The translations under genes were made by a program, and so were the position numbers. The notes beneath the pieces were generated by a model. It was not told where the DNA came from, searched no databases, and was given only the letters and a program-made list of their open reading frames with translations. Shown in pieces: positions 1,284 to 26,702 of a stretch of 64,000 nt of DNA (position 1 is its first letter; each line of letters opens with the position of its first letter). Origin of the DNA: Frigoriglobus tundricola. Lineage in GTDB: Bacteria; Planctomycetota; Planctomycetia; Gemmatales; Gemmataceae. The stretch covers positions 4,712,001 through 4,776,000 of the forward strand of contig NZ_CP053452.2 in the NCBI RefSeq assembly GCF_013128195.2, written 5' to 3'.

Positions 1284-2479
1284 ATGTCTCCCGCCACCGT
1301 CCTGCTGAGCAGCCCGCCCGATTCCACCGGCGACGAGTTACGGAAGCTGGTCGCGGCGGCCGGGTTCGTGGTCGCGGACCACCTGCTCGGCTCCCCGCCG
1401 GCCGTGGACTTCGGCCCGATCGTGACCGCCGTGATCGAGGTCGGGAGCCGCTCCGACGTGGCCGCGGCCCAGACGCGGCGGTGGCGGGCCGAACTCGGCG
1501 ACCAGTTCGTGCCGGTGCTGTGGGTCGTGCCCGCCGACAAGGGCGGCGGGGAACCGGGCGGTGCCCCCGATCAGCGGGTGGCCGGGCTGGACGCGGGCGC
1601 GGACGCGGTGCTGGCGCGCCCGGTCGATCCGGCGGTGTTCGTGGCACAGGTGCGGGGCGCTGGCCCGCGCGCAGGGCGCCGCGCGCGCGTGTGGCCGTTC
1701 GCGCGGGCGAGGCCCGGTTGCTGGGGGACCAGTTGCAGAAGGCGCTCGCCCAGCAGGCACGCGAACAGGAGATGGCCCGCCGGGTGCGCGGCACGTTCTT
1801 CCCGCGCTCGTTCCCCCAGGTCGGCGCGGCCCGGTTCCACGTGTGCTACCGGCCGCGGAGCCGGACCGGGGGCGACTTCCACGACGTGCGCCGGCTCGAC
1901 GAAAGCCACGTGGGATTCTTCGTGGGGGACGTGATCGGCACCGGCGCCGCGGCCGGGGGGCTGCTCGGCGTGTTCGTGCAACAATCGGCGGTGCTGAAAG
2001 AGATCACCGGGCAAAACTACCGGATCGTCCAGCCGGGCGAGGTGCTGACCGGCGTGAACCGGCAGTTGATCGGCCTCGGCGCAGAGGACCTGCCGCTCGT
2101 GGCGATGCTCACGGGCGTATTGAACGCGAAGACGGGTGCCATCGCGATCGCCCGCGCCGGATTGCCGGCAGCGGTCCACGTCCCCGCGAACGGTTCGCCC
2201 GGCGTATGGACGGTGCCCGGCCCCTTCCTCGGTACCGCCGACACCACGTACCAACCCTTTACGGGGACACTACTTCCGGGCGACCATTTGCTCATCGGCA
2301 CCGACGGCACGCGGCCCGACGGCGACCCCGGCCCCACCGGCAGCGAGCGACTGCTCGAAGCCGCCGCCAAGCACCGCGGCGCAACCGGAGCCGCGTTCGT
2401 GGACGCGGTCGCGCGGGAACTGCTCCAGTACGTGCGCCACGCCGACGACTTCACACTGCTGGGCGTGGAGATGGGGTGA
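1284..2479 (+). CDS. PP2C/SpoIIE-type phosphatase with N-terminal receiver-like domain, frameshifted
   Basis: The ATG at 1284 opens a frame encoding a receiver-like fold (VAGLDAGADAVLARPVDPAVF, about residues 1-120). From about 1660-1690 the reading continues in another frame as VAVRAGEARLLGDQLQKAL and a complete SpoIIE/PP2C phosphatase (RTGGDFHD, VGDVIGTGAAAG, GDHLLIGTDG, DDFTLLGVEMG) to 2479. One missing base in the GC-rich run joins the two into about 398 residues. The receiver part lacks an obvious phospho-acceptor Asp where VIEVG stands. Related proteins dephosphorylate anti-sigma antagonists; the nearest STAS protein here is far away (48567). Sequence error and genuine inactivation cannot be told apart. 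Confidence 0.7.
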
Positions 2480-2612
2480 CCTCCCCCCCGGCCCCCCTCC
2501 CTTCGGAGGAAGCGCGGAACGCGGAACTGGAGGGTGCCTTTGGTCTTCCACTCCGCGGACTGCGTTCCGCGTTCCGCGCTTCCTCCGAAGGGAGGGGGGC
2601 CGGGGGGGAGGT
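2479..2612. repeat. 48-bp perfect inverted repeat (family A, CCCTCCCTTC type)
   Basis: Arms 2479-2526 and 2565-2612 are exact reverse complements around a 38-bp spacer, and the left arm begins inside the stop codon of the phosphatase gene. Arms contain GGCCCCCCTCCCTTCGG and GCGCGGAACGCGGAA. Cognate copies with the CCTCCCT/AGGGAGG core lie at 26568-26702 and 57025-57163. It will form a strong terminator-like hairpin in RNA. Confidence 0.9.
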
Positions 2613-2684
2613 TCTTCAACCATTGTCGCGCTCTGGGCAAGCTCCTACGATAACTAGCCTAACCGTTACGCGCGGAGCAGAGTC

Positions 2685-2966
2685 ATGCAGAAGGGCATTC
2701 ACCCTAACTACCGTCCGGTCGTGTTCCAGGACGCGGCAGCCAATTTCGCCTTCCTCACCCAGTCGTGCGTCGAAACCGGCGACACGATCAAGTGGGAAGA
2801 CGGCAACGAGTACCCGCTTTACAAGCTGGAAATTTCCAGCGCCAGTCACCCGTTCTTCACGGGCAAAATGAAGCTGCTGGACACCACCGGCCGCGTCCAG
2901 AAGTTCAACGACAAGTACAAGAAGACCGGCTACAGCGGCGCGAAGAAGGGCGAGGCGAAAAAGTAA
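2685..2966 (+). CDS. rpmE2: 50S ribosomal protein L31, type B
   Basis: 93 residues beginning [16 protein letters not shown], which is the L31 signature, and containing the type B central part [11 protein letters not shown] followed by [12 protein letters not shown]. The zinc-binding Cys pairs of type A L31 are missing (only one Cys), so this is the zinc-independent form. The lysine-rich tail ([12 protein letters not shown]) is slightly extended. It acts on the large ribosomal subunit near the central protuberance, bridging to the small subunit. It lies 170 bp upstream of prfA on the same strand, an arrangement (L31 next to RF1) seen in many bacteria. Confidence 0.95.
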
Positions 2967-3136
2967 TCGCGTTTGTCGCGTTCGGTGGTGTTTCTCGAGT
3001 GGTTGACCACGACGACGGGTGTTCCGTGATGGGTGTGTCCAGGAACCGCGCCGCGTACGACCTGGGGCCGCTTTAGCGCCCCGGTTCGCGACCGCGTATT
3101 CCGGCACCACCCAACACCTTACCCCCGGCACCCTCC

Positions 3137-4216
3137 ATGTTTCCCGCTCTTGAGCAGAAGCTCGCGCGCTACAACGAACTCGAACAACAACTCTACGACC
3201 CCGATGTCGCGGGCGATCCGGCCAGGGTCGGTGCCATCGGCAAGGAGCGGGGCGCGCTCGCCAAGCAGGTCGAACCGTACATCGAGTACAAGCGCCTCTG
3301 CGCGGCCGTTGCCGACGCCGAAGCGATGGCCGCCGACCCGGACCTCAAGGCAATGGCCGATGAGGAACTGGCCGAACTGCGCCCGAAGCGCGACGCGCTG
3401 CACACGAAGATCGAAGAGCAACTCCTGATCGACCCCTCGGAAGATTTTTCACGGCTGATCGTTGAAATCCGCGCCGGGACCGGCGGCGACGAGGCCGCGC
3501 TGTTCGCGGGCAACCTGTACGAAATGTACACCCGCTACGCCCGCGAAAAGGGGTGGAAGGTCGAAGAAATTGCGGCCAGCCCCGGCGACGCGGGCGGGTT
3601 CAAGGAAGTCAGCTTCGGCGTGTCCGGCGACGACGTGTACCAGTACCTCCGCTACGAGTCCGGCGGGCACCGGGTCCAGCGCGTGCCGGCGACGGAAACG
3701 CAGGGCCGCATTCACACCTCCGCCGCGACAGTTGCCGTGCTGCCGGAGCCGGAAGAGGCGCAGGTCGTCATCAACGAGGCCGCGGACATCGAGTGGGAGC
3801 GGATGCGGGCCGGCGGGGCCGGCGGCCAGCACGTCAACAAGACCGAGTCGGCCGTCCGCATCTGGTACAAGAAGGGCACACCGGAAGAGATGGAAGTGAA
3901 GTGCCAGGACGGGCGGAGCCAGGGGAAGAACTACGAGCAGGCGATGCGTATTCTGCGGTCGCGGCTGTTCGAGCGGCAGCAGGAGAAGCTGCACCGGGAG
4001 CGGTCGGACATGCGGAAGTCGCTGATCGGTACCGGCGACCGGAACGCCCGCATCCGCACGTACAACTTCCCGCAGAACCGGTGCTCGGACCACCGCATCG
4101 AGTTCACGGCGTACAAGCTCGACGCGATCATGGCGGGCGACCTGGACCAGATGATCCAGCCGATGCGCGACCACGTCCGGAAAGAGAAGCTGTCCGCGGC
4201 GGGCCAGGCGGGGTGA
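3137..4216 (+). CDS. prfA: peptide chain release factor 1
   Basis: 359 residues, the usual length for RF1. The PAT tripeptide that reads UAA/UAG is at 184-186 (RVPATETQGRIHTS), which separates it from RF2 (SPF). The catalytic GGQ loop is at 229-231 (AGGAGGQHVNKTESAVRI), with the Gln that is methylated by PrmC. The N-terminal coiled region and the C-terminal NFPQNRCSDHRIEF are conserved. It hydrolyses peptidyl-tRNA on the ribosome at stop codons. prmC is not adjacent, although it often follows prfA; the next gene starts 3 bp downstream and is unrelated. Confidence 0.97.
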   Translation: MFPALEQKLARYNELEQQLYDPDVAGDPARVGAIGKERGALAKQVEPYIEYKRLCAAVADAEAMAADPDLKAMADEELAELRPKRDALHTKIEEQLLIDPSEDFSRLIVEIRAGTGGDEAALFAGNLYEMYTRYAREKGWKVEEIAASPGDAGGFKEVSFGVSGDDVYQYLRYESGGHRVQRVPATETQGRIHTSAATVAVLPEPEEAQVVINEAADIEWERMRAGGAGGQHVNKTESAVRIWYKKGTPEEMEVKCQDGRSQGKNYEQAMRILRSRLFERQQEKLHRERSDMRKSLIGTGDRNARIRTYNFPQNRCSDHRIEFTAYKLDAIMAGDLDQMIQPMRDHVRKEKLSAAGQAG

Positions 4217-4219
4217 CCG

Positions 4220-4907
4220 GTGGCAGAGCCGTTGCGTCCGCGCTCCGACCACGAACTCTACGCCTTCTTCCGCGAGCGCGTGGAGATGAGTTCCCGCGAT
4301 CACGACCGGCGTGAAACGGCCCGCCTCTACAACCGCCCCGAGCGATACGGGGCCGAGGCGCGGTATTGGACGATTGCGGGCGGCGAACCGCGACAGATGC
4401 GGTGCTATGGCACCGAATGCGGCTTCCGCATCCACCACCCGGAAACGCTCTACCACGGCGGTTATGAGTGGATCGACCCTCTCAATGCGGTTTTCGTTCG
4501 CGAATACCGGCGGCGACGGGTGCCACTTCAGTTTCGTAGCGCTTCCGGGCCAGCACCGGATCGAGGAGCGTCCGGTGGTGAGGACCGCTCCAGCCGGGGC
4601 GGGAGGCTGCACCCGCGAGTCGGCAAATGTGCTCGTCGGGGAGACCCTCTGGGAGTTCCTGGGCCTCGGCCTACGAACCGGGTTCTTCGTTCTCGAAATG
4701 CTGCCGTGCCGTCTGGACGGGTTCCTGGCCGAGTACCCGGACCGCGATCCGCTGCCGACGGCAGGTGATACGCACCAGCCCGAACTTCACGCACTGGCGG
4801 AACAGTTCGGGCTGGTGGGGTGGGGCCGCGGGGCCATCCGGCCGCGACTGGCCGAGCTGCGCGAGCGATACTTTCCGCAGTTGGTGTTCGGTCCGGACAT
4901 AACCTGA
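4220..4907 (+). CDS. unknown protein with TGGDGCHFSF motif, frameshifted
   Basis: The start ATG... follows the prfA stop by 3 bp (GTGGCAGAGCC context, first in-frame ATG-equivalent at 4220), so it is probably translationally coupled. The first part (ELYAFFRERVEMSSRDH ... HPETLYHGGYEWIDPLNAVFV) continues in the +1 frame from about 4500 as ANTGGDGCHFSFVALPGQ ... VLVGETLWEFLGLGLRTGFF to 4907. Removing one base in TTCGTTCGCGAA restores about 228 residues. The TGGDG.HFSF motif recurs in uncharacterised bacterial proteins, but I cannot name a function. It may be a real frameshift or a sequencing slip. Confidence 0.6.
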
Positions 4908-4964
4908 ACCGATGGCGAGCCAACCGATTAGGCGTCAGCCACCTTTCACCCCGCTGATTTCAAA

Positions 4965-5285
4965 TCAGCGTTCCAAAGTGGAGATCACGGAGAGGTGCGG
5001 GCCGTCGCTGGTCATGGTCAATTGGTAGTCGATTATCATCCGCTTGTTGGCGGCAAAATAGGTGGTCTTCCGCTTGATCAGGTCCATCATAACAGCCAGG
5101 AAATCGTCTCGTGCGTCAGGCGGGAGAGTTGCCGCCGTGCGGTCCAGCAGATCCGCCCGCTCACGAGGGGACGCGATGGCCGCGTTCCGAGCGATCAGAG
5201 CGACGGAGACCAGCTTCTTGAGCTGGTCTCCGGTTTTCCAGTGGTCCTTGTAAGGTTCGATAAAGTCCCACACCACCTCGGACAT
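4965..5285 (-). CDS. hypothetical protein, uncertain N-terminus
   Basis: 106 residues from the ATG at 5285 (MSEVVWDFIEPYKDHWKTGDQL), mostly alpha-helical, soluble, without a recognised domain. The frame stays open upstream to about 5450 and there encodes a Lys/Gln-rich stretch followed by PPPEAPLVLIEPRGEVK, which reads like protein, but this part has no ATG, GTG or TTG. Either the true start has been lost by mutation or frameshift, or translation begins at 5285 and the upstream match is accidental. No function proposed. Confidence 0.55.
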   Translation of the reverse strand: MSEVVWDFIEPYKDHWKTGDQLKKLVSVALIARNAAIASPRERADLLDRTAATLPPDARDDFLAVMMDLIKRKTTYFAANKRMIIDYQLTMTSDGPHLSVISTLER

Positions 5286-5739
5286 CTTGACTTCACCGCG
5301 CGGCTCAATGAGAACCAGGGGCGCCTCGGGTGGTGGATCGTTTTTAGCGAATCGGTTCTTCAGTGCCTTCTTTTTCTTTGCTTGCTTCTTTTGTTCTTGC
5401 GATCGCCCACGGTCAACCCTCTCGTATCGGCAGCGTCGGGCCGGCTCTCACCCGCTAACCTATCCGCTCCTCGGCCGTTGCTCAACCAGTGTCCGGCCGC
5501 CGATTGAAAGGCTCTGTTTGGACAAAACAAACTAGTTGATAATCAAGTCAAAGCGGCACAAGTCATAAAGTCGAAAACCTGGACCCGCTCCGGTCGTTGC
5601 CTCTACGACCGGCGACTACGACTTGAGACGGCACCGGGCCAACCCGCGACGCGCGCCCGCGGCTTGGCCGTCGATTGTCGCGCGCCGCAGCGAAGGTGAG
5701 CGGATTGCCCTGTCGGACGACCGGATCGAAGCGGCCGGC
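5286..5739. other. intergenic region without a clear gene
   Basis: Contains the possible upstream extension of the 4965-5285 gene (to about 5450) and an inverted repeat at 5559-5625. Nothing else supportable is seen on either strand. Confidence 0.5.
5559..5625. repeat. inverted repeat, family C (CAAGTCrTAAAGTC)
   Basis: Left arm CAAGTCATAAAGTCG (5559-5573) and right arm CGACTACGACTTG (5613-5625), enclosing GGACCCGCTCCGGTC. The same arm sequence and the reverse complement of the inner segment occur at 41141-41178, so this is a dispersed element rather than a chance hairpin. Confidence 0.65.
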
Positions 5740-6117
5740 TCACTTGGCTGTCACCCGGACAAACGACCGCTCGGTGCCCTTATCGTCGATGGTGACCAGT
5801 TCCGTGTCGGTCAGCTTGGTGACGCTCCGGTTCGATTTCTCCTCCTGATCGCCCAGCTTCATCGTCATCTCGATTTTGTTCCCGCTGACCTTGTAGGTGC
5901 CATCGGCCGTGAGCGCCTTGCCGTCCCCGGTGGTCAGGGTGAACTTCGCCTTGCCGTCCTTCATGATCTCCAGCACCACCGATCCGTCCTTCTTCTCTGT
6001 CCGCTCCCACTTCCCGACCAACTTGTCGGGGTCGATTTTCTCGACCTTTTTGTCGTCCGCCCCGGCCTGTAAGCCGAAGGCGAGCACGAGGACCGCCAGA
6101 AGAACGCGCAGGTTCAT
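5740..6117 (-). CDS. small secreted protein, TIGR03066/TIGR03067-like planctomycete paralog family
   Basis: 125 residues with a signal peptide (MNLRVLLAVLVLAFGLQAGA) and a lipocalin-like beta-rich body: KLVGKWERTEKKDG, LEIMKDGKAKFTL, DGTYKVSGNKIEMTMKL, RSVTKLTDTELVTIDDKG. The order GKW... / DGTYKV.GN.. / L..TELV matches the small repeated families described from Gemmata obscuriglobus. Predicted to be exported to the periplasm or surface; no biochemical role is known. It stands alone, followed on the same strand by no partner gene. Confidence 0.75.
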   Translation of the reverse strand: MNLRVLLAVLVLAFGLQAGADDKKVEKIDPDKLVGKWERTEKKDGSVVLEIMKDGKAKFTLTTGDGKALTADGTYKVSGNKIEMTMKLGDQEEKSNRSVTKLTDTELVTIDDKGTERSFVRVTAK

Positions 6118-6272
6118 GGGAAGCTCCGGTGAAACGAGTCCATCAGGGCATACCCGTGAACTCGGTTACTGTCCACTGCGCCTTCGATGTGTCAGGCGGC
6201 TGATTGAATGACGACGGTGCGAGCTGCGAACGTTGGCGCTGGGAGCGCGGCACCTGTTCGTTCGGGGGGTAA

Positions 6273-6345
6273 TGGCCCCGGAGGGAGTCGAACCCCCGTT
6301 TCGTGGTTGTCACCCACGCGTCGTAAGCCGTTGGACCACGAGGCC
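6273..6345 (-). tRNA. tRNA-Val (anticodon GAC)
   Basis: Read on the minus strand: acceptor GGCCTCG (6345-6339) pairs with CGGGGCC (6280-6274), D-arm GTC...GAC, anticodon stem CGTGG/CCACG with loop GTGACAA giving anticodon GAC, four-base variable region, T-arm GGGGG-TTCGACT-CCCTC, discriminator A. Length 73 nt; CCA is not encoded (ATT follows). GAC reads the valine codons GTC/GTT. Fold was done by hand. Confidence 0.92.
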
Positions 6346-6542
6346 GCGATCCGATCATTGGAGAGGACGCGCGGCCGCAGGCACAGGTTCGCGAGCAGTG
6401 TCAGGTTGCTTTCACGGACCGTCCGTTCCACCTCCGCTGCGCCATCGGCGGGCTCATGTGGCGCGGCAGCGCGTGCGAGGTGTCGTCCCGGCCCGGTTTC
6501 TACAATACCCCCACTTCACTCTCCTCCGCAGGAACCTTCGAG

Positions 6543-8081
<1,539 letters not shown>

Positions 8082-8090
8082 CCAGCGCGA

Positions 8091-8202
8091 AGTGCGGAGC
8101 GCGGAGTTCAGACCGGAGAATGAAGAACGCGGAGCGAAAGACCGAAAACCAGAATCGGCTCTGAGTATTCGGTGTTTCACTCCGCGTTCCGCGTTCCGCA
8201 CT
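8091..8202. repeat. degenerate inverted repeat (GCGGAGCGCGGAG type)
   Basis: AGTGCGGAGCGCGGAGT (8091-8107) and ACTCCGCGTTCCGCGTTCCGCACT (8179-8202) form imperfect arms. The GCGGAACGCGGA words resemble the inner half of the repeat at 2479-2612. Confidence 0.6.
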
Positions 8203-8218
8203 CCGCGCTCAAAAAACA

Positions 8219-8250
8219 CCGCCCGGCGGTACGGGGATACCACCGGGCGG
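8219..8250 (+). terminator. hairpin downstream of fumC
   Basis: CCGCCCGGCGGTA (8219-8231) and TACCACCGGGCGG (8238-8250) pair with one mismatch around a 6-nt loop. There is no T-run after it; it lies 137 bp past the fumC stop. Confidence 0.55.
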
Positions 8251-8474
8251 CCGGGAGATCGACCCACACGGGGTGCGATCTTGCTCCTAGCGTAATCACA
8301 TTCTGCCATCGGATCAATGGTCCGGCACGTTTTTTCCTACCGGCCGAACGTGACACCCACATCTGTTGAGCGCGGCAAGAAAATCCGTGCCCGCCACAAC
8401 TCTGCTGGCACTTGGGCCGTCTTGAGTGAATCGGGGACACCCGATTCGCCCCTCAACATATCGGAGTTCGTTGT

Positions 8475-9380
8475 ATGCGTCGGTATTTACTGGCCGCGAG
8501 CTTTGCCGCGGCCGCGGTCGCGATCGTGGCCGATCCGGCTGGTGCCCTCATGATAGCCGTTCCGCAGCCCGGCCACCTCGCGATCACCTCTCCGGTCGTG
8601 GTGACCGGGAAGGTCACCTCGATCGCGACCGACACGGTCGAGGCGGCGTCACCGTTCGCCGGCGCCAAGGACAAGCTGAAGTACAAGATCGCGACCGTGA
8701 AGATCGATACCGGCCTGTCCGGCATTGATGGCACGAAGGTGAAGGAGATCAAGGTTGGGTTCGTTCCGCCGCCGGACCCGAACGCCAAACAGCCCGGCCT
8801 TCGCCCCGGCCTTCGCCCCGGCCGCCGCCCGCCGGAACTGAAGGAGGGGCAAGAGGCGATCTTCTTCCTCGCCAAGCACCCGACCGCCGACTTTTACGTC
8901 ATCCCCGGTATCAGCGCCCCCTTTGACATCAGCACCCCCGAGGGGAAGAAGACCCTCGAAGACGTCAAGAAGGTGGCGGCGACGCTGGCCGACCCGATGA
9001 AGGGGCTGAAGAGCGACAAGGCCGACGTGCGGGCCGAAACCGCTGCCGTCCTGGTGACGAAGTACCGCGCCTACCCGGCGTTCGGCGGCGAGATCGAAGA
9101 GGTCGCGCTCCCGGCCGATGAGAGCAAGCTCATCCTGAGGGCCCTCGCCGAAGGCAACTGGCAGGCCGCCCGCATCGGCGGGGCGCCGAACCCGTTCATG
9201 GCGTTCAACCAGCTCGGCCTGAACGAAAAGGACGGCTGGGTTCCGCCGATCATCGTGAACGTCCCCGGTCAGCCCGGCCCCGATTACACGGTCGTCATGA
9301 AGGACGCGTTCGGCAAGTGGCTCGAAGGCCCGGGCAAGGATTACAAGATCAAGAAGGTCGTACCCCAGGCGGCCAAGTAA
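8475..9380 (+). CDS. secreted protein of unknown function (tandem paralog 1)
   Basis: 301 residues with a signal peptide (MRRYLLAASFAAAAVAIVADPAGA). The mature part has a beta-rich region (VVVTGKVTSIATDTVEA ... KLKYKIATVKIDTGLSG ... IKVGFVPPPDPN), a short RPGLRPGLRPGRRPP proline/arginine repeat, then a helical half with KSDKADVRAETAAVLVTKYR and LPADESKLILRALAEGNW. The next gene is a clear paralog with the same order of blocks. The arrangement VxGKVT...YKIAxxKxxTGL suggests an exported carbohydrate- or protein-binding module, but no named domain is recognised. It probably resides in the periplasm. Confidence 0.8.
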   Translation: MRRYLLAASFAAAAVAIVADPAGALMIAVPQPGHLAITSPVVVTGKVTSIATDTVEAASPFAGAKDKLKYKIATVKIDTGLSGIDGTKVKEIKVGFVPPPDPNAKQPGLRPGLRPGRRPPELKEGQEAIFFLAKHPTADFYVIPGISAPFDISTPEGKKTLEDVKKVAATLADPMKGLKSDKADVRAETAAVLVTKYRAYPAFGGEIEEVALPADESKLILRALAEGNWQAARIGGAPNPFMAFNQLGLNEKDGWVPPIIVNVPGQPGPDYTVVMKDAFGKWLEGPGKDYKIKKVVPQAAK

Positions 9381-21459: not shown

Positions 21460-21687
21460 CAGCGACAGATTGGGGCGCGCGTTCGAACCCGCGGCTGAGC
21501 TTGGCGGTCCGGAAAGCGGCGGCCCGTTTGCGAAGAAGACCTTGAGCCAGTGATAGAAGCCGGTCACGTGGATCTGATGCTCCTCGTACAGATCGGAACC
21601 GGGGCACCTGTTCGACGCGGTGCTTCTTGAGAATGGCGCCCTTCTCGGTCGGGCCGAACACGCGGAACTGCGACGCGGGAACTTCCA
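21460..21687 (-). pseudogene. transposase helix-turn-helix fragment
   Basis: On the minus strand FGPTEKGAILKKHRVEQVP is followed, one frame off, by SDLYEEHQIHVTGFYHWLKVFFANG. Joined, these match the N-terminal HTH subunit of IS3/IS66-type transposases (TxEKxAIL..H..E..PVSDLCDE..I.PT.FYRW.K..FENG). A frameshift, the absence of the catalytic DDE part and the neighbouring intron mark it as a remnant. Its family cannot be fixed further. Confidence 0.6.
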
Positions 21688-21694
21688 GTCGAGT

Positions 21695-21726
21695 TAAGAG
21701 TTTACACCCGCACGCACTCGATAGAA
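21695..21726 (-). repeat. 32-bp dispersed motif, copy 1
   Basis: TTCTATC-N3-TGCGTGCGGG followed by TGTAAACTCTTA on the minus strand. It matches 24579-24610 at 29 of 32 positions. It abuts the 3' end of the group II intron. Confidence 0.75.
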
Positions 21727-22944
21727 TCGGGTAGGGGGCGGGATTACCCCGCCGTCCTCCCACACCACCGGACGTACTCGCGTATCCGGCGGTTCCTAAC
21801 GTGCTTGTAACGCCTCGTATCGATCGACGAGGCACGCCAGTCCGAGACGCTTCCACCAACTGGACGGCATCGCCGGGTTCGCCACGGGCGCCCCCGACTT
21901 CCGCCACCAGCCCTTCCCCGACAACGCGGTACACCACGCTTGACGCAACGACACGCCCTGCCGAACGAAGGCGTCCACCATCGGTTTCACTCGCTTGCAC
22001 GGCTTCAACCGCACGCACCGCAACTCCCGGCGAACCCAGTCGTCTCGTTCGACCAAATGGCTCCGCATCGCCGCGCGGCGAAAGTACGTCACCCATCCGC
22101 TCAGAAACGAGTTGAGTTCCCCGACCATCCGCTCGAGGCGATGCCCCGATTCCGACGGGTGATCGATCGGATGCGGTCCTTGGCCCGCTCCCGACTCACC
22201 GGCGCGAGCCCCAACCGCCCGTCGCTCAGAAGTCGATGGCTGAGGAACTTCCGCTCCTCGACCCGTGCCACTGCACTCTTCCACCGATTGACACGCAGCT
22301 GGAGTTTCGCCTCCAGGAACGTCATGACCGACGCTATCACCCGCCGACCGGCCGCTTCCGACCGCACGTAAATGTTGCCGTCATTCGCGTACCGGCAGAA
22401 GGTGTGGCCCCGACGCTCCCGTTCCTGGTCCAGGTCGGCCAACAGCAGATTCGCCAACGGCGGCGACAGCGGCCCCCCTTACGGTGTCCCTTCGTGACAT
22501 TTGATACACACGCCGCCTTGCATCAGCCCCCGCTTCCCGAATGCGGCGGGTGGGTGCCTCCCCCGTGAGTTTCCTCACCGGACGGACGAACGACTACGGC
22601 CTCGGCTGACTTCTCCCGGCCCGTGCCCGAGGCGTTGCCGCCCCAGGTACGGAGATCGCCTCCGCGGGTCGAGAGATCTCCCAGGGTAAGTTGCGTTGCT
22701 TCGTCGAGCGGCCGCCGGTTTACCCACGTGTGCGTTCGAGTGAGATCGGGCTTCGCGGTCCGTTGCCCGCTGACCCCGCCACGCGTGGCTCGTATCCGGT
22801 TCCTGTTCGTCGGCTCCCGGCTGGGGGCTTCGGCTTCCTTCCGATTCCGCCTCGCGACGGACACCCTTGCTTAGCCGGGCGGTTCCGGTCATCACGGTCC
22901 GCAGAGGACTTCCACCCCCTCAAACCACAACATGCCTGGCACAC
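21726..22944 (-). mobile_element. degenerate group II intron
   Basis: About 1.2 kb on the minus strand. The 5' end reads GTGTGCCAGGCATG (from 22944), fitting the GUGYG consensus, followed by GGTGGAAGTCCTCTGCGG and the conserved core word AGCAAGGGTGTCC with GGCGGAATC..AAGGAAGCC. The 3' end has CCGGATACGCGAGTACGTCCGG and GTGGTGTGGGAGG, the domain V/VI-like hairpins, finishing CCTACCCGAT at 21726. An internal reverse-transcriptase/maturase reading frame is broken. It sits directly after the terminator hairpin of the 23003-24514 gene, an insertion habit known for bacterial class C introns. Intron class and exact ends are inferred by eye. Confidence 0.72.
21796..22530 (-). pseudogene. group II intron reverse transcriptase/maturase, inactivated
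   Basis: Reads GLMQGGVCIKCHEGTP-stop-GGPLSPPLANLLLADLDQ, where TAA at 22481-22479 replaces the Gln/Glu codon of the universal EGTPQGGPLSP motif. RYANDGNIYVRS follows, with the catalytic YADD changed to YAND. A frameshift near 22165 precedes LERMVGELNSFLSGWVTYFRRA and the maturase/GIIM domain ending SGKGWWRKSGAP..ANPAMPSSWWKRLGL. Missing metal-binding Asp, nonsense codon, truncated N-terminus and frameshift each suggest it cannot splice or retrotranspose alone. Confidence 0.78.
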
Positions 22945-22951
22945 AATAGAA

Positions 22952-22978
22952 CCGCCCACACGGTTCACGTGCGGGCGG
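22952..22978 (-). terminator. hairpin terminator of the zinc-ribbon protein gene
   Basis: CCGCCCACACG (22952-22962) pairs with CGTGCGGGCGG (22968-22978) with one mismatch around a 5-nt loop. On the minus strand it is followed by TTCTATT and then the 5' end of the intron. Confidence 0.65.
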
Positions 22979-23002
22979 TGGGGTGCCGGCTCGGCGCGCG
23001 GG

Positions 23003-24514
23003 TCACTGTGTGAACCACGCGTCTTCGACATCGATGTCCGCGTCGGTCAGTCCGGTACATTTCCCCTTGATCTTGATCGTCGCGCCGGCCCGCAAGTACG
23101 GGAACTGGCTCTTCAGATCCGTGTCGAACGCAACAGTAATTTTGCGGTCGTCATTCTTACCGACTGTTGTGATCACGATCCGGCCGTTCTCGACGCGCTC
23201 GATCCGGGCGCCAGAAATCGTGAGGTCCTTGTTCTTGTATTTCGGGTCGGCGGTCCCCGGGTTCGCGTAATCGGCGATCAGGGTCGCCGCCGAGACCTGC
23301 ACCGAAGGGTCGGGGGCCGCGGCACCCGAGAGCGTGCCGTCCGCGAACTCGTCGAGGCCGAACCCCGTGCACTTCCCGGACACCTTGATGCGCTGCCCCC
23401 GGCCGTAGGAGAACGGCGCTTGGCCGGCGCGCAGCGCGCAGGTGATTTCTTTAAGCTGGCCCTTCGCCGCGCCCTCCAGGACGACCTCCAGCGTGTTGCC
23501 CCGCGCCGAAATTCTCAACAGCTTCCCGCTCAGGATGAACGTCTTGTTTTGGTACTTGTCCCGCGCCGCCGGCGCGTCGTCGTCCGTCTGCTTGGCCAGG
23601 TCTTCGGCCCGCACTTCGGTCGTGGGGCCGATGGGCGGGTACTGCTGGAGGAACTTCGCGTCGTCGAGTTCCCCGGCGGAGGTGGGCGCGCCATTCTTCG
23701 GGCGCCACTCCTTGGCCTGAACGCGCCCCTGGTCCTCGGCGTTCGGGTGGAACGCGGCCAGGATGTAATCGTCGCCGTTGCGCCAGTACACGACCCGGCT
23801 CTGATTGGCCTTCGGGGTCCAGGCATCGATCTTCTTCTGGTCCGCGCCGAACGCCTTCCTCAGGTCGTCGGCGGTCGCGGTCTTCCCCTTGGAGAGAGTG
23901 GCCTCCGCTTGCGCCCGGGTCGTCGTTCCGACCTTCAGCTCCCCGTAACTCCGTTGGGACACCAAGAAGTTAGAGTTTTCGAGGGCCTCTTTCGCCTTAT
24001 CGAGGGTCTCGACCACCGCCTCCTTCGTCTTCACCATGAACCAGTAGACGCCGAACCCGACGCTCCCGCAGCAGGTGAGCAGGGTGGCGCAGACGATGCC
24101 GACGATCAGCGCCGCGTTCGACCCGCCCTCGGCTCTCTTGCCGCGGCCCGCTCGGTCCGGCTCATCGCCGTCGTGCCGCCTGCGCTTCACCGGCCGGCCG
24201 TCGTCCTCGTCGTCGCGCCGCTCGCGCTTCGCCGGCCGGTCGTCGTCACCGTCCGCCCTCTTCGACCGGACCGGTTTGCCGCTGGCCCGGGCGGGCGCCG
24301 GTTCGTCCAGCGCTTCGAACGGCGCCCGCTCCGGCGGCGGGGGAGCGACCGGAGCGGCTTTCGCCGGCGTGGGCGGAGCCGCCGGGGCGGGCGCGGGCGG
24401 CTGAGAAGCGGGGATGACGCCGCTGCACTTGGGGCACTTCACGGCCCGTTCGGCGTACTCGTCCTTCACCGAAAGTGTCGCGGAACATGACGGACACGTT
24501 ATGCGGATCGGCAT
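23003..24514 (-). CDS. zinc-ribbon membrane protein with two OB-fold (tRNA_anti-like) domains
   Basis: 503 residues from the ATG at 24514 (CTGGAG six bases upstream). N-terminal zinc ribbon MPIRITCPSCSATLSV...AVKCPKCSG (two CPxC knuckles), a long Pro/Ala then Arg/Asp-rich linker, one transmembrane helix (ALIVGIVCATLLTCCGSVGFGVYWF, about 145-170), then an exported part with two related OB-fold modules: KYQNKTFILSGKLLRI...GQRIKVSGKCTGF and KYKNKDLTISGARIERV...ATIKIKGKCTGL. The repeated KGKCTG ends are characteristic of the tRNA_anti-like family. Predicted one-pass inner-membrane protein; ligand unknown. A CPxC ribbon plus low-complexity linker is common in Gemmata membrane proteins. Confidence 0.85.
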   Translation of the reverse strand: MPIRITCPSCSATLSVKDEYAERAVKCPKCSGVIPASQPPAPAPAAPPTPAKAAPVAPPPPERAPFEALDEPAPARASGKPVRSKRADGDDDRPAKRERRDDEDDGRPVKRRRHDGDEPDRAGRGKRAEGGSNAALIVGIVCATLLTCCGSVGFGVYWFMVKTKEAVVETLDKAKEALENSNFLVSQRSYGELKVGTTTRAQAEATLSKGKTATADDLRKAFGADQKKIDAWTPKANQSRVVYWRNGDDYILAAFHPNAEDQGRVQAKEWRPKNGAPTSAGELDDAKFLQQYPPIGPTTEVRAEDLAKQTDDDAPAARDKYQNKTFILSGKLLRISARGNTLEVVLEGAAKGQLKEITCALRAGQAPFSYGRGQRIKVSGKCTGFGLDEFADGTLSGAAAPDPSVQVSAATLIADYANPGTADPKYKNKDLTISGARIERVENGRIVITTVGKNDDRKITVAFDTDLKSQFPYLRAGATIKIKGKCTGLTDADIDVEDAWFTQ

Positions 24515-24578
24515 CGGCCACTCCAGGGCTGAAACGGCGGGGGAGAGAGATCCCGTCACCGCACGGGGCGGGTCGGAG

Positions 24579-24610
24579 TAAGAGTTTACACCCGCGCGCA
24601 CGTGATAGAA
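24579..24610 (-). repeat. 32-bp dispersed motif, copy 2
   Basis: On the minus strand TTCTATC-N3-TGCGCGCGGG then TGTAAACTCTTA; 29 of 32 bases match the copy at 21695-21726. It immediately follows the ilvB terminator hairpin. Confidence 0.75.
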
Positions 24611-24611
24611 A

Positions 24612-24649
24612 CGAAGAACGCCCGGGCGCCGGCGCCCGGGCGTTCTTCG
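24612..24649 (-). terminator. 19-bp perfect hairpin terminator of ilvB
   Basis: CGAAGAACGCCCGGGCGCC (24612-24630) and its exact complement (24631-24649) abut with no spacer. On the minus strand the sequence TTTCTATC follows. It begins 14 bp after the ilvB stop. Confidence 0.85.
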
Positions 24650-24663
24650 CTCGCACGTGGCGC

Positions 24664-26430
24664 TCACGCCTTGATGATGTCCTTCACGGTCGCGCCGGCG
24701 GGGATCATCGGCAGCACGTGTTCCTGGTGCGGCACGTGGACGTTCAGCAGGAACGGCCCCGGCGCCTCGATCATCTCCACGAGCGCGGCGTCCAGATCGG
24801 CCTTATCGGTGACGCTCCGCGCCGCCACCCCGAAGCCCTCCGCGATCTTGCAGAAGTCCGGGTACGGCGGCAGGTCCTCGCCCGCCCCCAGGTACGTGTG
24901 GCCGCGGTTCGAGCCGAAGAACCGGTCCTCCCACTGCATCACCATCCCGAGGTGCTGGTTGTTCAGCAGCAGCACCTTGGCGGGAATCTTCTCCGCGAAC
25001 GCGGTCGCCAGCTCCTGCACGTTCATCAGGAAGCTGCCGTCGCCGTCGATGTCGATGACGAGGTCGTTCGGGAACGCGACCTGGGCCCCCAGCGCGCTCG
25101 GCAGGCCGAAGCCCATCGTGCCGAGGCCGCCGCTGGTGATCCACTTCCGCGGCGTGTTGAAGTGGAAGAACTGCGCCGCCCACATCTGGTGCTGGCCCAC
25201 GCCGGTCGTGATGATCGTGCGGTCGAGCTGGTTGCGGTCGCGCAGGATCTCCCACAGCCGGTGAATGGCGAACTGCGGGATGATCGCGTGCTCGGGCTCG
25301 ACGAACTTGAGCGGCTCGGCCTCGCGCCAGGCGTCGATCTGGCGCCACCAGTCCGGGTACCGCCCGCCCGCCGTCAGGTCCGCGTTCTTCTCCTCTTTCA
25401 AGAGCGCGTTGAGGCCGCCGAGCGCCGCCTTCAGGTCGCTGTGGACCGGGACGTGGGCGAACTTGTTCTTGTGGATCTCCGACTTGTCGATGTCGATGTG
25501 GACGATCTTGCCGTGCTTGGCGAACTCGCTGAGCTTGCCGGTCACGCGGTCGTCGAACCGCACGCCCAGCGCGAGCAGCAGGTCGGCGTCGTTGATCGCG
25601 TAGTTCGAGTACACCGTGCCGTGCATGCCGAGCATCTGGAGGCACAGGTAGTGGTCGGCCGGGAAGTTCCCGAGGCCGTGGACGGTGAGGCCCACGGGCG
25701 CGCCGAGCAGTTCCGCGAACTCCTTGAGTTCGGCGGCGGCGCCGCTGTGGGTGACCCCACCGCCGGCGTAGATGAACGGCTTCTTGCTCGCCCGGATGGC
25801 GGCGATCACGGCCTCGAGTTCGGGCCGCGTGGCCTTCCGCAGCGGGCGGTAGCCGGGCAGGTCCATCGGCGGGTCCCAGTCGGGCACGATCGATTTGGTC
25901 TGCACGTCCTTGCAGATGTCGATGAGGACCGGGCCGGGGCGGCCGGTCGTGGCGATGTGGAACGCCTCCTTCACCACCCGGGTGACGTCCTCGGTGCGGG
26001 TCAGGAGGTAGTGGTGCTTGGTAATGCCGCGGCAGATCTCCACCATCGGCGTTTCCTGGAACGCGTCGTTGCCCAGGACGTTCGTGCTCACCTGCCCGGT
26101 AATGGCGATGAGCGGGATGGAGTCCATCTTGGCGTCGGCGATGCACGTCACGAAGTTCGTCGCGCCGGGGCCGCTGGTGGAGACGCACACGCTGGCCTTG
26201 CCGGTGGTGCGGCTGTAGCCGTGGCCCATGAACCCGCCGCCCTGCTCGTGGCGCGGGAGGATGGTGCGGAGCGTGCCGCTGACGCGGGTGAGCGCCTGGT
26301 GGATGGGCATGCTCGCCCCGCCCGGGTACGCGAAGACGGTGTCGACGCCGTGGCGGATCAGGCTGTGCACGAGGATGTCGGCGCCGCTCATGGGGGCGCT
26401 CGGGGCCACGGTCGTGTTCGGATCGGCCAT
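24664..26430 (-). CDS. ilvB: acetolactate synthase, large (catalytic) subunit
   Basis: 588 residues from the ATG at 26430. Three thiamine-diphosphate enzyme domains are visible: Pyr domain with the catalytic Glu in [18 protein letters not shown] and [16 protein letters not shown], central FAD-type domain ([16 protein letters not shown]), and the PP domain with the Mg/TPP motif [35 protein letters not shown]. The GMVMQW element is specific to AHAS. It condenses two pyruvates, or pyruvate and 2-ketobutyrate, in the first common step of Val/Leu/Ile synthesis. The regulatory subunit ilvN and ilvC are not adjacent. A strong hairpin ends the gene; the promoter is not evident. Confidence 0.96.
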
Positions 26431-26567
26431 CGCTGGTCGCCTGTTGGGAGGAGAGGATAACCCCGCGCGCGCGGGCAGTTCTCTCGATATCGAGAGAATC
26501 AGTATACCGTTTGGCCGCGCCGGCGGGAACCGCGCTCGCGCGAAGATGTGAGGAAGGCTGGTGCCCG

Positions 26568-26702
26568 GAAGAACCCACCCCCACCCCTCCCTGAAGGGAG
26601 GGAGCACGACCGGCAGCCCTTCGGTACGTCCCGAGAACCGGGGGAGGCGTGTCGCGCGTTCACCCCCTCCTCTTCAGGGAGGGGGCTGGGGGGGGCTTCT
26701 TC
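26568..26702. repeat. long inverted repeat, family A
   Basis: GAAGAACCCACCCCCACCCCTCCCT near 26568-26592 pairs imperfectly with the AGGGAGGGGGCTGGGGGGGC..CTTCTTC arm ending 26702. Each arm carries its own CCTCCCT..AGGGAGG mini-palindrome. The same design is present at 57025-57163 and, with a different inner part, at 2479-2612. Confidence 0.8.

What the first reader, a model, noticed from the sequence alone, without database searches (positions are those of the whole stretch)
21726..24649. Three hairpin - TTCTAT - GTGYG junctions around a dead group II intron
On the minus strand the terminator of the 23003 gene is followed by TTCTATT then GTGTGCC (intron 5' end). The intron's final hairpin is followed by TTCTATC and GTGCGTGCGGG. 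The ilvB terminator is followed by TTTCTATC and GTGCGCGCGGG. The last two share a 32-bp motif (29/32). This suggests repeated insertion of intron-like elements downstream of terminators with TTCTAT as the binding site, as known for class C introns, leaving 5' scars at two places.
Basis: partly seen in the sequence, partly recalled or inferred. Interest (0 to 1): 0.6.

Follow-up and report, generated by a model that had tools for sequence, protein, structure and literature searches.

The report
Decayed terminator intron beside duplicated promoter
A worn-out self-splicing mobile element sits just behind a gene's stop signal, as its class usually does, and the striking repeated motif next to it is a copied piece of a neighbouring gene's stop/start region rather than a scar left by other such elements.

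Summary
The three junctions are real and the coordinates good. One is a group II intron (22944..21726, minus strand, 1219 bp) inserted in the T-tail behind the hairpin of the 23003 gene, the known habit of class C (IIC) introns. As a retroelement it is defunct: about 727 nt are missing and a frameshift breaks its reverse transcriptase, though domain V is intact. The other two junctions are not intron scars. The ilvB-side copy is a terminator tail plus the conserved upstream (probable promoter) element of the 23003 gene. The same block, without an intron, precedes this gene in all 6 relatives fetched where it adjoins ilvB, and (one variant) in 3 where it does not. The intron-side copy is a lineage-specific duplicate (42 bp, 83% identical) between the intron's 3' end and a broken IS3-type gene piece. 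The 32-mer (up to 3 mismatches) has no third place in this genome and none in 98 relatives. TTCTAT is not the binding site: 1 of 10 sister introns (this one) and 1 of 116 introns from the genome collection have it at the insertion point; they follow varied T-tails behind hairpins. How the duplicate arose is inferred, not shown. An ordinary find.

The parts
24664..26607 (-). ilvB, acetolactate synthase large subunit (ORF as listed; the stretch scanned was 24664-26436)
   Evidence: TIGR00118 684 bits
24616..24637 (-). hairpin after ilvB (probable intrinsic terminator), followed by the tail TTCGTTTC
   Evidence: the scan found 4 terminator-like sites against 3.3 in shuffles, so position and relatives carry the call
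24572..24613 (-). copy A of the repeat: terminator tail plus conserved upstream (probable promoter) element of the 23003 gene
   Evidence: aligned with CGGGYGTATACACT in relatives, here CGGGTGTAAACTCT; block also before this gene away from ilvB; no sigma-70 consensus found
23003..24514 (-). gene for a tRNA_anti-like (OB) domain protein with a weak zinc-ribbon match, next to ilvB in 6 relatives
   Evidence: PF12869 64.9 bits; PF13717 20.9 bits, below its cut-off
22951..22979 (-). hairpin after that gene (probable intrinsic terminator), -23.9 kcal/mol with flanks
   Evidence: hairpin plus T-tail after this gene read by eye in 5 of 6 relatives
22945..22951 (-). TTCTATT, last 7 nt of the 5' exon (the T-tail)
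21726..22944 (-). group II intron, class C type, 1219 bp, internally deleted
   Evidence: RF02001 84.6 bits, RF01998 35.1 bits; 87-88% identical to a 1946-bp full-length copy in G002
22686..22861 (-). group II D1-D4 match RF02001
22556..22649 (-). group II D1-D4 match RF01998 (35.1 bits, cut-off 35)
22548..22550 (-). junction of the internal deletion (intron positions 395/397; positions 396-1123 of the G002 copy unmatched)
21799..22541 (-). reverse transcriptase/maturase remnant: first 273 residues of the sister's open frame without a match, YADD read as YAND, one frameshift near 22138
21764..21794 (-). domain V, same fold and energy (-17.9) as in two full-length copies
21688..21729 (-). copy B of the repeat: last 4 nt of the intron (21729-21726), then the 3' exon from 21725
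   Evidence: no similarity to the IS3 left ends
21490..21689 (-). 5' piece of an IS3-type orfA with a frameshift, directly after copy B
   Evidence: relative L079 matches IS3 family models best, below their cut-off

Best explanation
A class C group II intron retro-inserted into the T-tail just downstream of the terminator hairpin of the 23003 gene, the standard target of its class; it later lost about 727 nt of its reverse transcriptase gene and picked up a frameshift. The 32-bp motif is host sequence: upstream of the 23003 gene it is a terminator tail joined to the conserved upstream (probable promoter) element of that gene. The copy next to the intron is a lineage-specific duplicate of about 42-50 bp of that junction, lying between the second hairpin and an IS3-type gene piece. 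Shown: intron ends, target type, deletion, presence of the block before the same gene in relatives, uniqueness of the pair. Inferred: that the element is a promoter; that the duplicate arose by template switching between the two terminator tails (shared GGGCG..TTCT) or is the stub of a larger tandem duplication; and that the intron came after the duplication.
For: Intron: RF02001 84.6 bits. 3' end fixed by a second copy and by sister introns ending ...CCTACCCGAT. All 10 family introns with a readable 5' end follow a hairpin of -21.3 to -33.2 kcal/mol (no shuffles there). Of 116 flanks from the genome collection 103 fold at -12 kcal/mol or lower against 22 of 116 shuffled, with a T-rich tail. 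A full-length G002 protein is closest to GsI-IIC RT (452.6 bits; LtrA 130.5). Deletion and frameshift. Motif: aligned with 6 relatives where the gene adjoins ilvB. Block or variant before the same gene in 3 relatives where it does not adjoin ilvB, and absent after ilvB in the 10 relatives read where something else follows. Two places in this genome, none in 98 relatives; 0 in the genome collection with a 20-mer. 42-nt repeat; IS3 homology starts at 21689.
Against: No sigma-70-like promoter is recognised in the region, and terminator-like sites there (4) are no more than in shuffles (3.3): 'promoter' and 'terminator' rest on position, conservation and folding. This genome's block differs from the relatives' CGGGYGTATACACT at 2-3 of 14 positions, and the strict relatives' pattern does not ring here. 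No blastn trace of a duplicated gene body lies downstream of copy B (tblastx gave scattered weak matches). The homology extends into the 5' exon only slightly (joined flanks score 29, 500 shuffles at most 17), so 'duplicate first, intron second' is parsimony only. The IBS1-EBS1 pairing was not identified.
Confidence: 0.85

Rival explanations
1. One reading: repeated insertion of intron-like elements at TTCTAT sites behind terminators, leaving 5' scars at two places.
For: Three hairpin-TTCTAT-GTGYG junctions within 3 kb.
Against: Beyond GTGYG, 2-6 of 18 positions match intron 5' ends, chance level; the block or a variant stands before the same gene without an intron in 9 relatives; TTCTAT in 1 of 10 and 1 of 116 insertion sites; genome-wide pattern count equals its control.
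Confidence: 0.02
2. Copy B is the promoter stub of a full tandem duplicate of the 23003 gene whose body was later lost or replaced by the IS3 piece.
For: Copy B follows the hairpin of the 23003 gene as copy A follows that of ilvB; the short homology GGGCG..TTCT in both tails would suit an unequal exchange.
Against: No blastn trace of the gene body downstream of B; no second full copy of the gene in the genome (own matches are short except the gene itself).
Confidence: 0.25
3. The motif is an insertion-sequence end.
For: Copy B abuts an IS3-type orfA piece.
Against: The motif is unlike the left-end region of the two related elements (shuffle fractions 0.998 and 0.898 of 500), while the sequence from 21689 on is like them (0 and 0.008); the other copy is the upstream block of the 23003 gene.
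Confidence: 0.04
4. The 42-bp repeats bound a mobile unit carrying the 23003 gene and the intron (footprint of insertion).
For: Direct repeats flank a 2.9-kb segment.
Against: The gene lies directly downstream of ilvB in 6 same-genus genomes; five of these show the block once by a strict pattern and the sixth a variant.
Confidence: 0.03

Closest known systems
Class C (IIC) group II introns inserting after intrinsic terminators (PMC4424553 and PMC8919778, passages, citing Robart et al. 2007)
   Same: Insertion behind a hairpin within a T-tail; protein lineage closest to GsI-IIC; group II ribozyme domains; same 5' and 3' ends as sister introns.
   Different: Lacks about 727 nt, reverse transcriptase broken; no intact copy of this lineage found in the genome.
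IS3-family insertion sequences
   Same: The piece downstream of copy B resembles an IS3-type orfA of G001 (63% over 27 aa).
   Different: Only a 5' piece with a frameshift; the motif itself is not its end.
Terminator-promoter junctions between neighbouring genes
   Same: Copy A is such a junction by position and conservation.
   Different: Here a 42-bp piece is duplicated 2.9 kb away with no intact gene seen directly behind it.

Membership tests
group II intron, class C (IIC) | group II ribozyme domains | tested here: met
   RF02001 84.6 bits, RF01998 35.1 bits; domain V folds like two full-length copies
group II intron, class C (IIC) | intron-encoded protein of the class C clade | tested here: met
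   Tested on a full-length G002 copy 87-88% identical to this intron: best match 6ar1 GsI-IIC RT 452.6 bits; 7uim 315.1 and 5hhj 273.2 (that these are IIC is recalled); LtrA 130.5. No tree was built
group II intron, class C (IIC) | insertion after an intrinsic terminator | tested here: met
   hairpin 22979-22951; 10 of 10 family introns with a readable 5' end; 103 of 116 other flanks at -12 kcal/mol or lower, 22 of 116 shuffled
group II intron, class C (IIC) | 5' GTGYG and 3' AY ends (recalled) | tested here: met
   GTGTG at 22944, GAT ending at 21726
group II intron, class C (IIC) | functional reverse transcriptase/maturase | tested here: not met
   deletion, YADD to YAND, frameshift: a relic, not an active member
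group II intron, class C (IIC) | IBS1-EBS1 and IBS3-EBS3 pairing | tested here: inconclusive
   looked for by eye in the alignment, not resolved
group II intron, class C (IIC) | splicing | not testable with these tools
   needs an experiment
   chance identity beyond GTGYG
IS3 end (for the motif) | similarity to the left end of related IS3 elements | tested here: not met

The most novel reading that the evidence does not exclude
The intron carried its former 3' flank with it: copy A reads hairpin-TTCTTCGTT|TCTATC, which would itself be a typical target of this lineage (sister introns sit behind TTTCGTT), and the sequence after the intron is just what would follow an insertion there. So the intron may once have sat behind ilvB and moved, by an unknown template-switching or recombination event, to the next terminator together with about 40 bp of downstream DNA (a 3' transduction).
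Probability: 0.04. Interest if true: 0.5.

Novelty: new member of a known kind. Interest (0 to 1): 0.12.

Why it matters
It settles the finding as ordinary: a known class of retroelement in its known target, plus a small local duplication. Useful by-products are a set of sister introns showing that the target is a hairpin plus a varied T-tail rather than a fixed word, and a reminder that TTCTAT-GTGYG in this genome occurs as often as its reversed control.

Tried and rejected
Genome-wide scan for TTCTAT N(0-3) GTGYG: 4 places, reversed control 4; the only one outside the window (C1:6289146) shows no homology beyond short matches of 14-31 nt. Further copies of the motif: one 2-mismatch 17-mer elsewhere in this genome, none of the 32-mer in 98 relatives, none of a 20-mer in the genome collection (records of this genome may be left out there).

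Search for a full-length active copy in this genome: none of this lineage by RF02001 or DNA (which gave two 5'-truncated 3' pieces and one weak D1-like match). Three reverse transcriptases over the TIGR04416 cut-off and without stops exist; RF01999 was found at one, RF02003 at another and no intron family at the third (E up to 0.01).

IS-end hypothesis tested and rejected; the two window pieces gave no Pfam family. Trace of a duplicated gene body: none by blastn. A tblastx comparison was too noisy to use and its output was cut. One search listed files only. In one search my script read the minus-strand loci in the wrong direction; those rows were not used, and the loci were read again in the right direction. 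The EBS1 loop was not resolved. A search for intron-intron tandem junctions of this lineage gave 0 of 95 genomes. Robart et al. 2007 (PMC1871835) is not held, so it is cited only through passages of PMC4424553 and PMC8919778. The other papers were seen as listings with the start of their abstracts only. One whole-genome search (of 12) was left unused.

Full report
What is there. The window is 64 kb of a 9.86-Mb genome in two contigs. On the minus strand the order is: ilvB (TIGR00118, 684 bits); a hairpin (24637-24616); copy A of the motif; a gene at 23003-24514 with tRNA_anti-like (OB) domains and a weak zinc-ribbon match (PF12869 64.9 bits, PF13717 20.9 below its cut-off); its hairpin (22979-22951); a group II intron (22944-21726); copy B of the motif; and a 5' piece of an IS3-type orfA. 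The terminator scan found 4 sites against 3.3 in shuffles, so the hairpins are called terminators from their place after stop codons, their folding and the relatives, not from the scan.

The three junctions read as described. The 32-mer (up to 3 mismatches) has two places in the genome and its 23-nt core 0.00 expected matches in the window. As a 42-nt repeat the copies are 83% identical and 2884 bp apart. One correction: two other pieces of the same intron in this genome align up to window positions 21726 and 21730, and sister introns end ...CCTACCCGAT. So the intron ends with the first T of 'TTCTATC' and the 3' exon is TCTATCGAGTGCG.

The intron. RF02001 gives 84.6 bits and RF01998 35.1 (cut-off 35). 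RF02001 over 95 genomes of the family rang in 11, with 18 places listed. In 10 of these, this one included, I read a 5' end of the GTGYGCCAG type. Of the other eight, three on G041 C20 start GTACG; G041 C28, G132 C30 and G058 gave no such 5' end by pattern; G038 and G022 (partial matches) were not examined. All 10 follow a hairpin of -21.3 to -33.2 kcal/mol. Their last seven exon bases are TTCTATT (here), TTTCGTT twice, TTTGCTT, CTTTGTT, CTGCGAT, GTTGTTT, TTCCATT, TTGGATT and TTGCGTT: T at -6 and -1 in 10 of 10, TTCTAT in 1 of 10. Three flanks were too short or held N and one was a duplicate, leaving 116; some come from one species, so they are not all independent. TTCTAT lies in the last ten bases of 1 of 116, TTCTATT ends 0 of 116, and the tail is T-rich. 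103 of 116 fold at -12 kcal/mol or lower against 22 of 116 after one shuffle each. The target is a hairpin with a loose T-tail.

Class and state. The reverse transcriptase of a full-length sister (G002, 1946 bp) matches GsI-IIC RT best at 452.6 bits, then 7uim 315.1 and 5hhj 273.2 (recalled to be IIC as well), and LtrA at 130.5. This intron aligns with the sister over 1-395 (86.9%) and 397-1219 against 1124-1946 (88.5%), so about 727 nt are missing. The first 273 residues of the sister's 521-residue open frame (stop to stop) have no match, the frame changes near residue 408, and the remnant reads YAND where the sister has YADD. Domain V folds as in two sisters, so the ribozyme core may survive. 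RF02001 and a DNA search show no intact copy of this lineage in the genome. Three other group II reverse transcriptases pass the family cut-off without stops, with RF01999 and RF02003 found at two of them. That class C introns insert at terminators is established (passages of PMC4424553, and PMC8919778).

The motif. A DNA search with the ilvB end plus the next gene matched 17 of 18 same-genus relatives. In six (G013, G010, G008, G001, G002, G007) the match ran past the ilvB stop into that gene, and I fetched these. All six have a hairpin, a T-tail and a CGGGYGTATACACT-type block there: the strict pattern rings in five, and G002 has a variant. This genome's copies read CGGGTGTAAACTCT, differing at 2-3 of 14 positions, and do not ring with the strict pattern; the alignment places copy A there. 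In the ten other relatives whose ilvB end I read, something else follows ilvB and the block is absent. In three relatives where the gene has another neighbour, the tail and block stand directly before it (G004 and G016; G018 a variant); in a fourth (G011) the start was not found. So the block belongs to the gene, as a promoter would. Beyond GTGYG the motif matches intron 5' ends at 2-6 of 18 positions, as shuffles do.

Copy B aligns with copy A (joined flanks: score 29, 500 mononucleotide shuffles at most 17). A hairpin with a T-tail follows the gene in 5 of 6 relatives (read by eye; G010's frame stopped early), and the strict pattern finds no second block in the stretches fetched. So copy B is a gain of this lineage, as far as the held genomes show.

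Downstream of copy B. A frameshifted piece resembles IS3-type orfA of G001 (63% over 27 aa); the relative L079 matches IS3 family models best, below their cut-off. The motif does not resemble the left ends of these elements, whereas the sequence from 21689 on does. No blastn trace of a second gene body was found there. The origin of copy B is thus open between a short templated duplication and the stub of a larger one; I favour the first, by inference.

Results against my reading: no sigma-70-like promoter was recognised at either copy; the homology reaches into the 5' exon only briefly; EBS1 was not found. No claim of absence from print is made.

Noticed in passing
L074 (G041 C20, another genus of the family), reverse-complement positions 2423-8500: Three group II introns of about 2030 bp head to tail with no spacer (...CCTTACCCGAT|GTACGCCC), 99.4-99.8% identical, the third running to the contig end; perhaps insertion behind the intron's own last hairpin. 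A junction of that kind for the window's lineage was found in 0 of 95 genomes..
   Followed up: partly
L069 and L070 (G005); L074 reverse-complement 1058-1726: Sister introns of about 419, 504 and 669 bp that keep both ends but have large internal deletions; in the first two domain V was not seen in the last 95 nt.
   Followed up: no
L009 (C1:8696407-8696946) and L010 (C1:5206049-5206430): Two 5'-truncated pieces of the same intron lineage in this genome, 86 and 84% identical, ending at CCGAT; L010 lies next to a tRNA gene.
   Followed up: partly
L011 (C1:7982751): A 114-nt stretch 70% like intron domain I, downstream of what looks like a strong inverted repeat; no GTGYG start was noticed; possibly an old or different group II intron.
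   Followed up: no
L068 (G002 C1:5940150-5943050): A copy identical to a full-length sister for 1198 nt with no further match in the stretch fetched: 3'-truncated or interrupted.
   Followed up: no
G000 C1:3713401-3714522: Group II type reverse transcriptase (363 bits, no stops) with no intron RNA family found in the locus held.
   Followed up: no
L032 (G016 C9): The relative's copy of the 23003-type gene has an in-frame stop early in its zinc-ribbon part, though its upstream block is kept.
   Followed up: no
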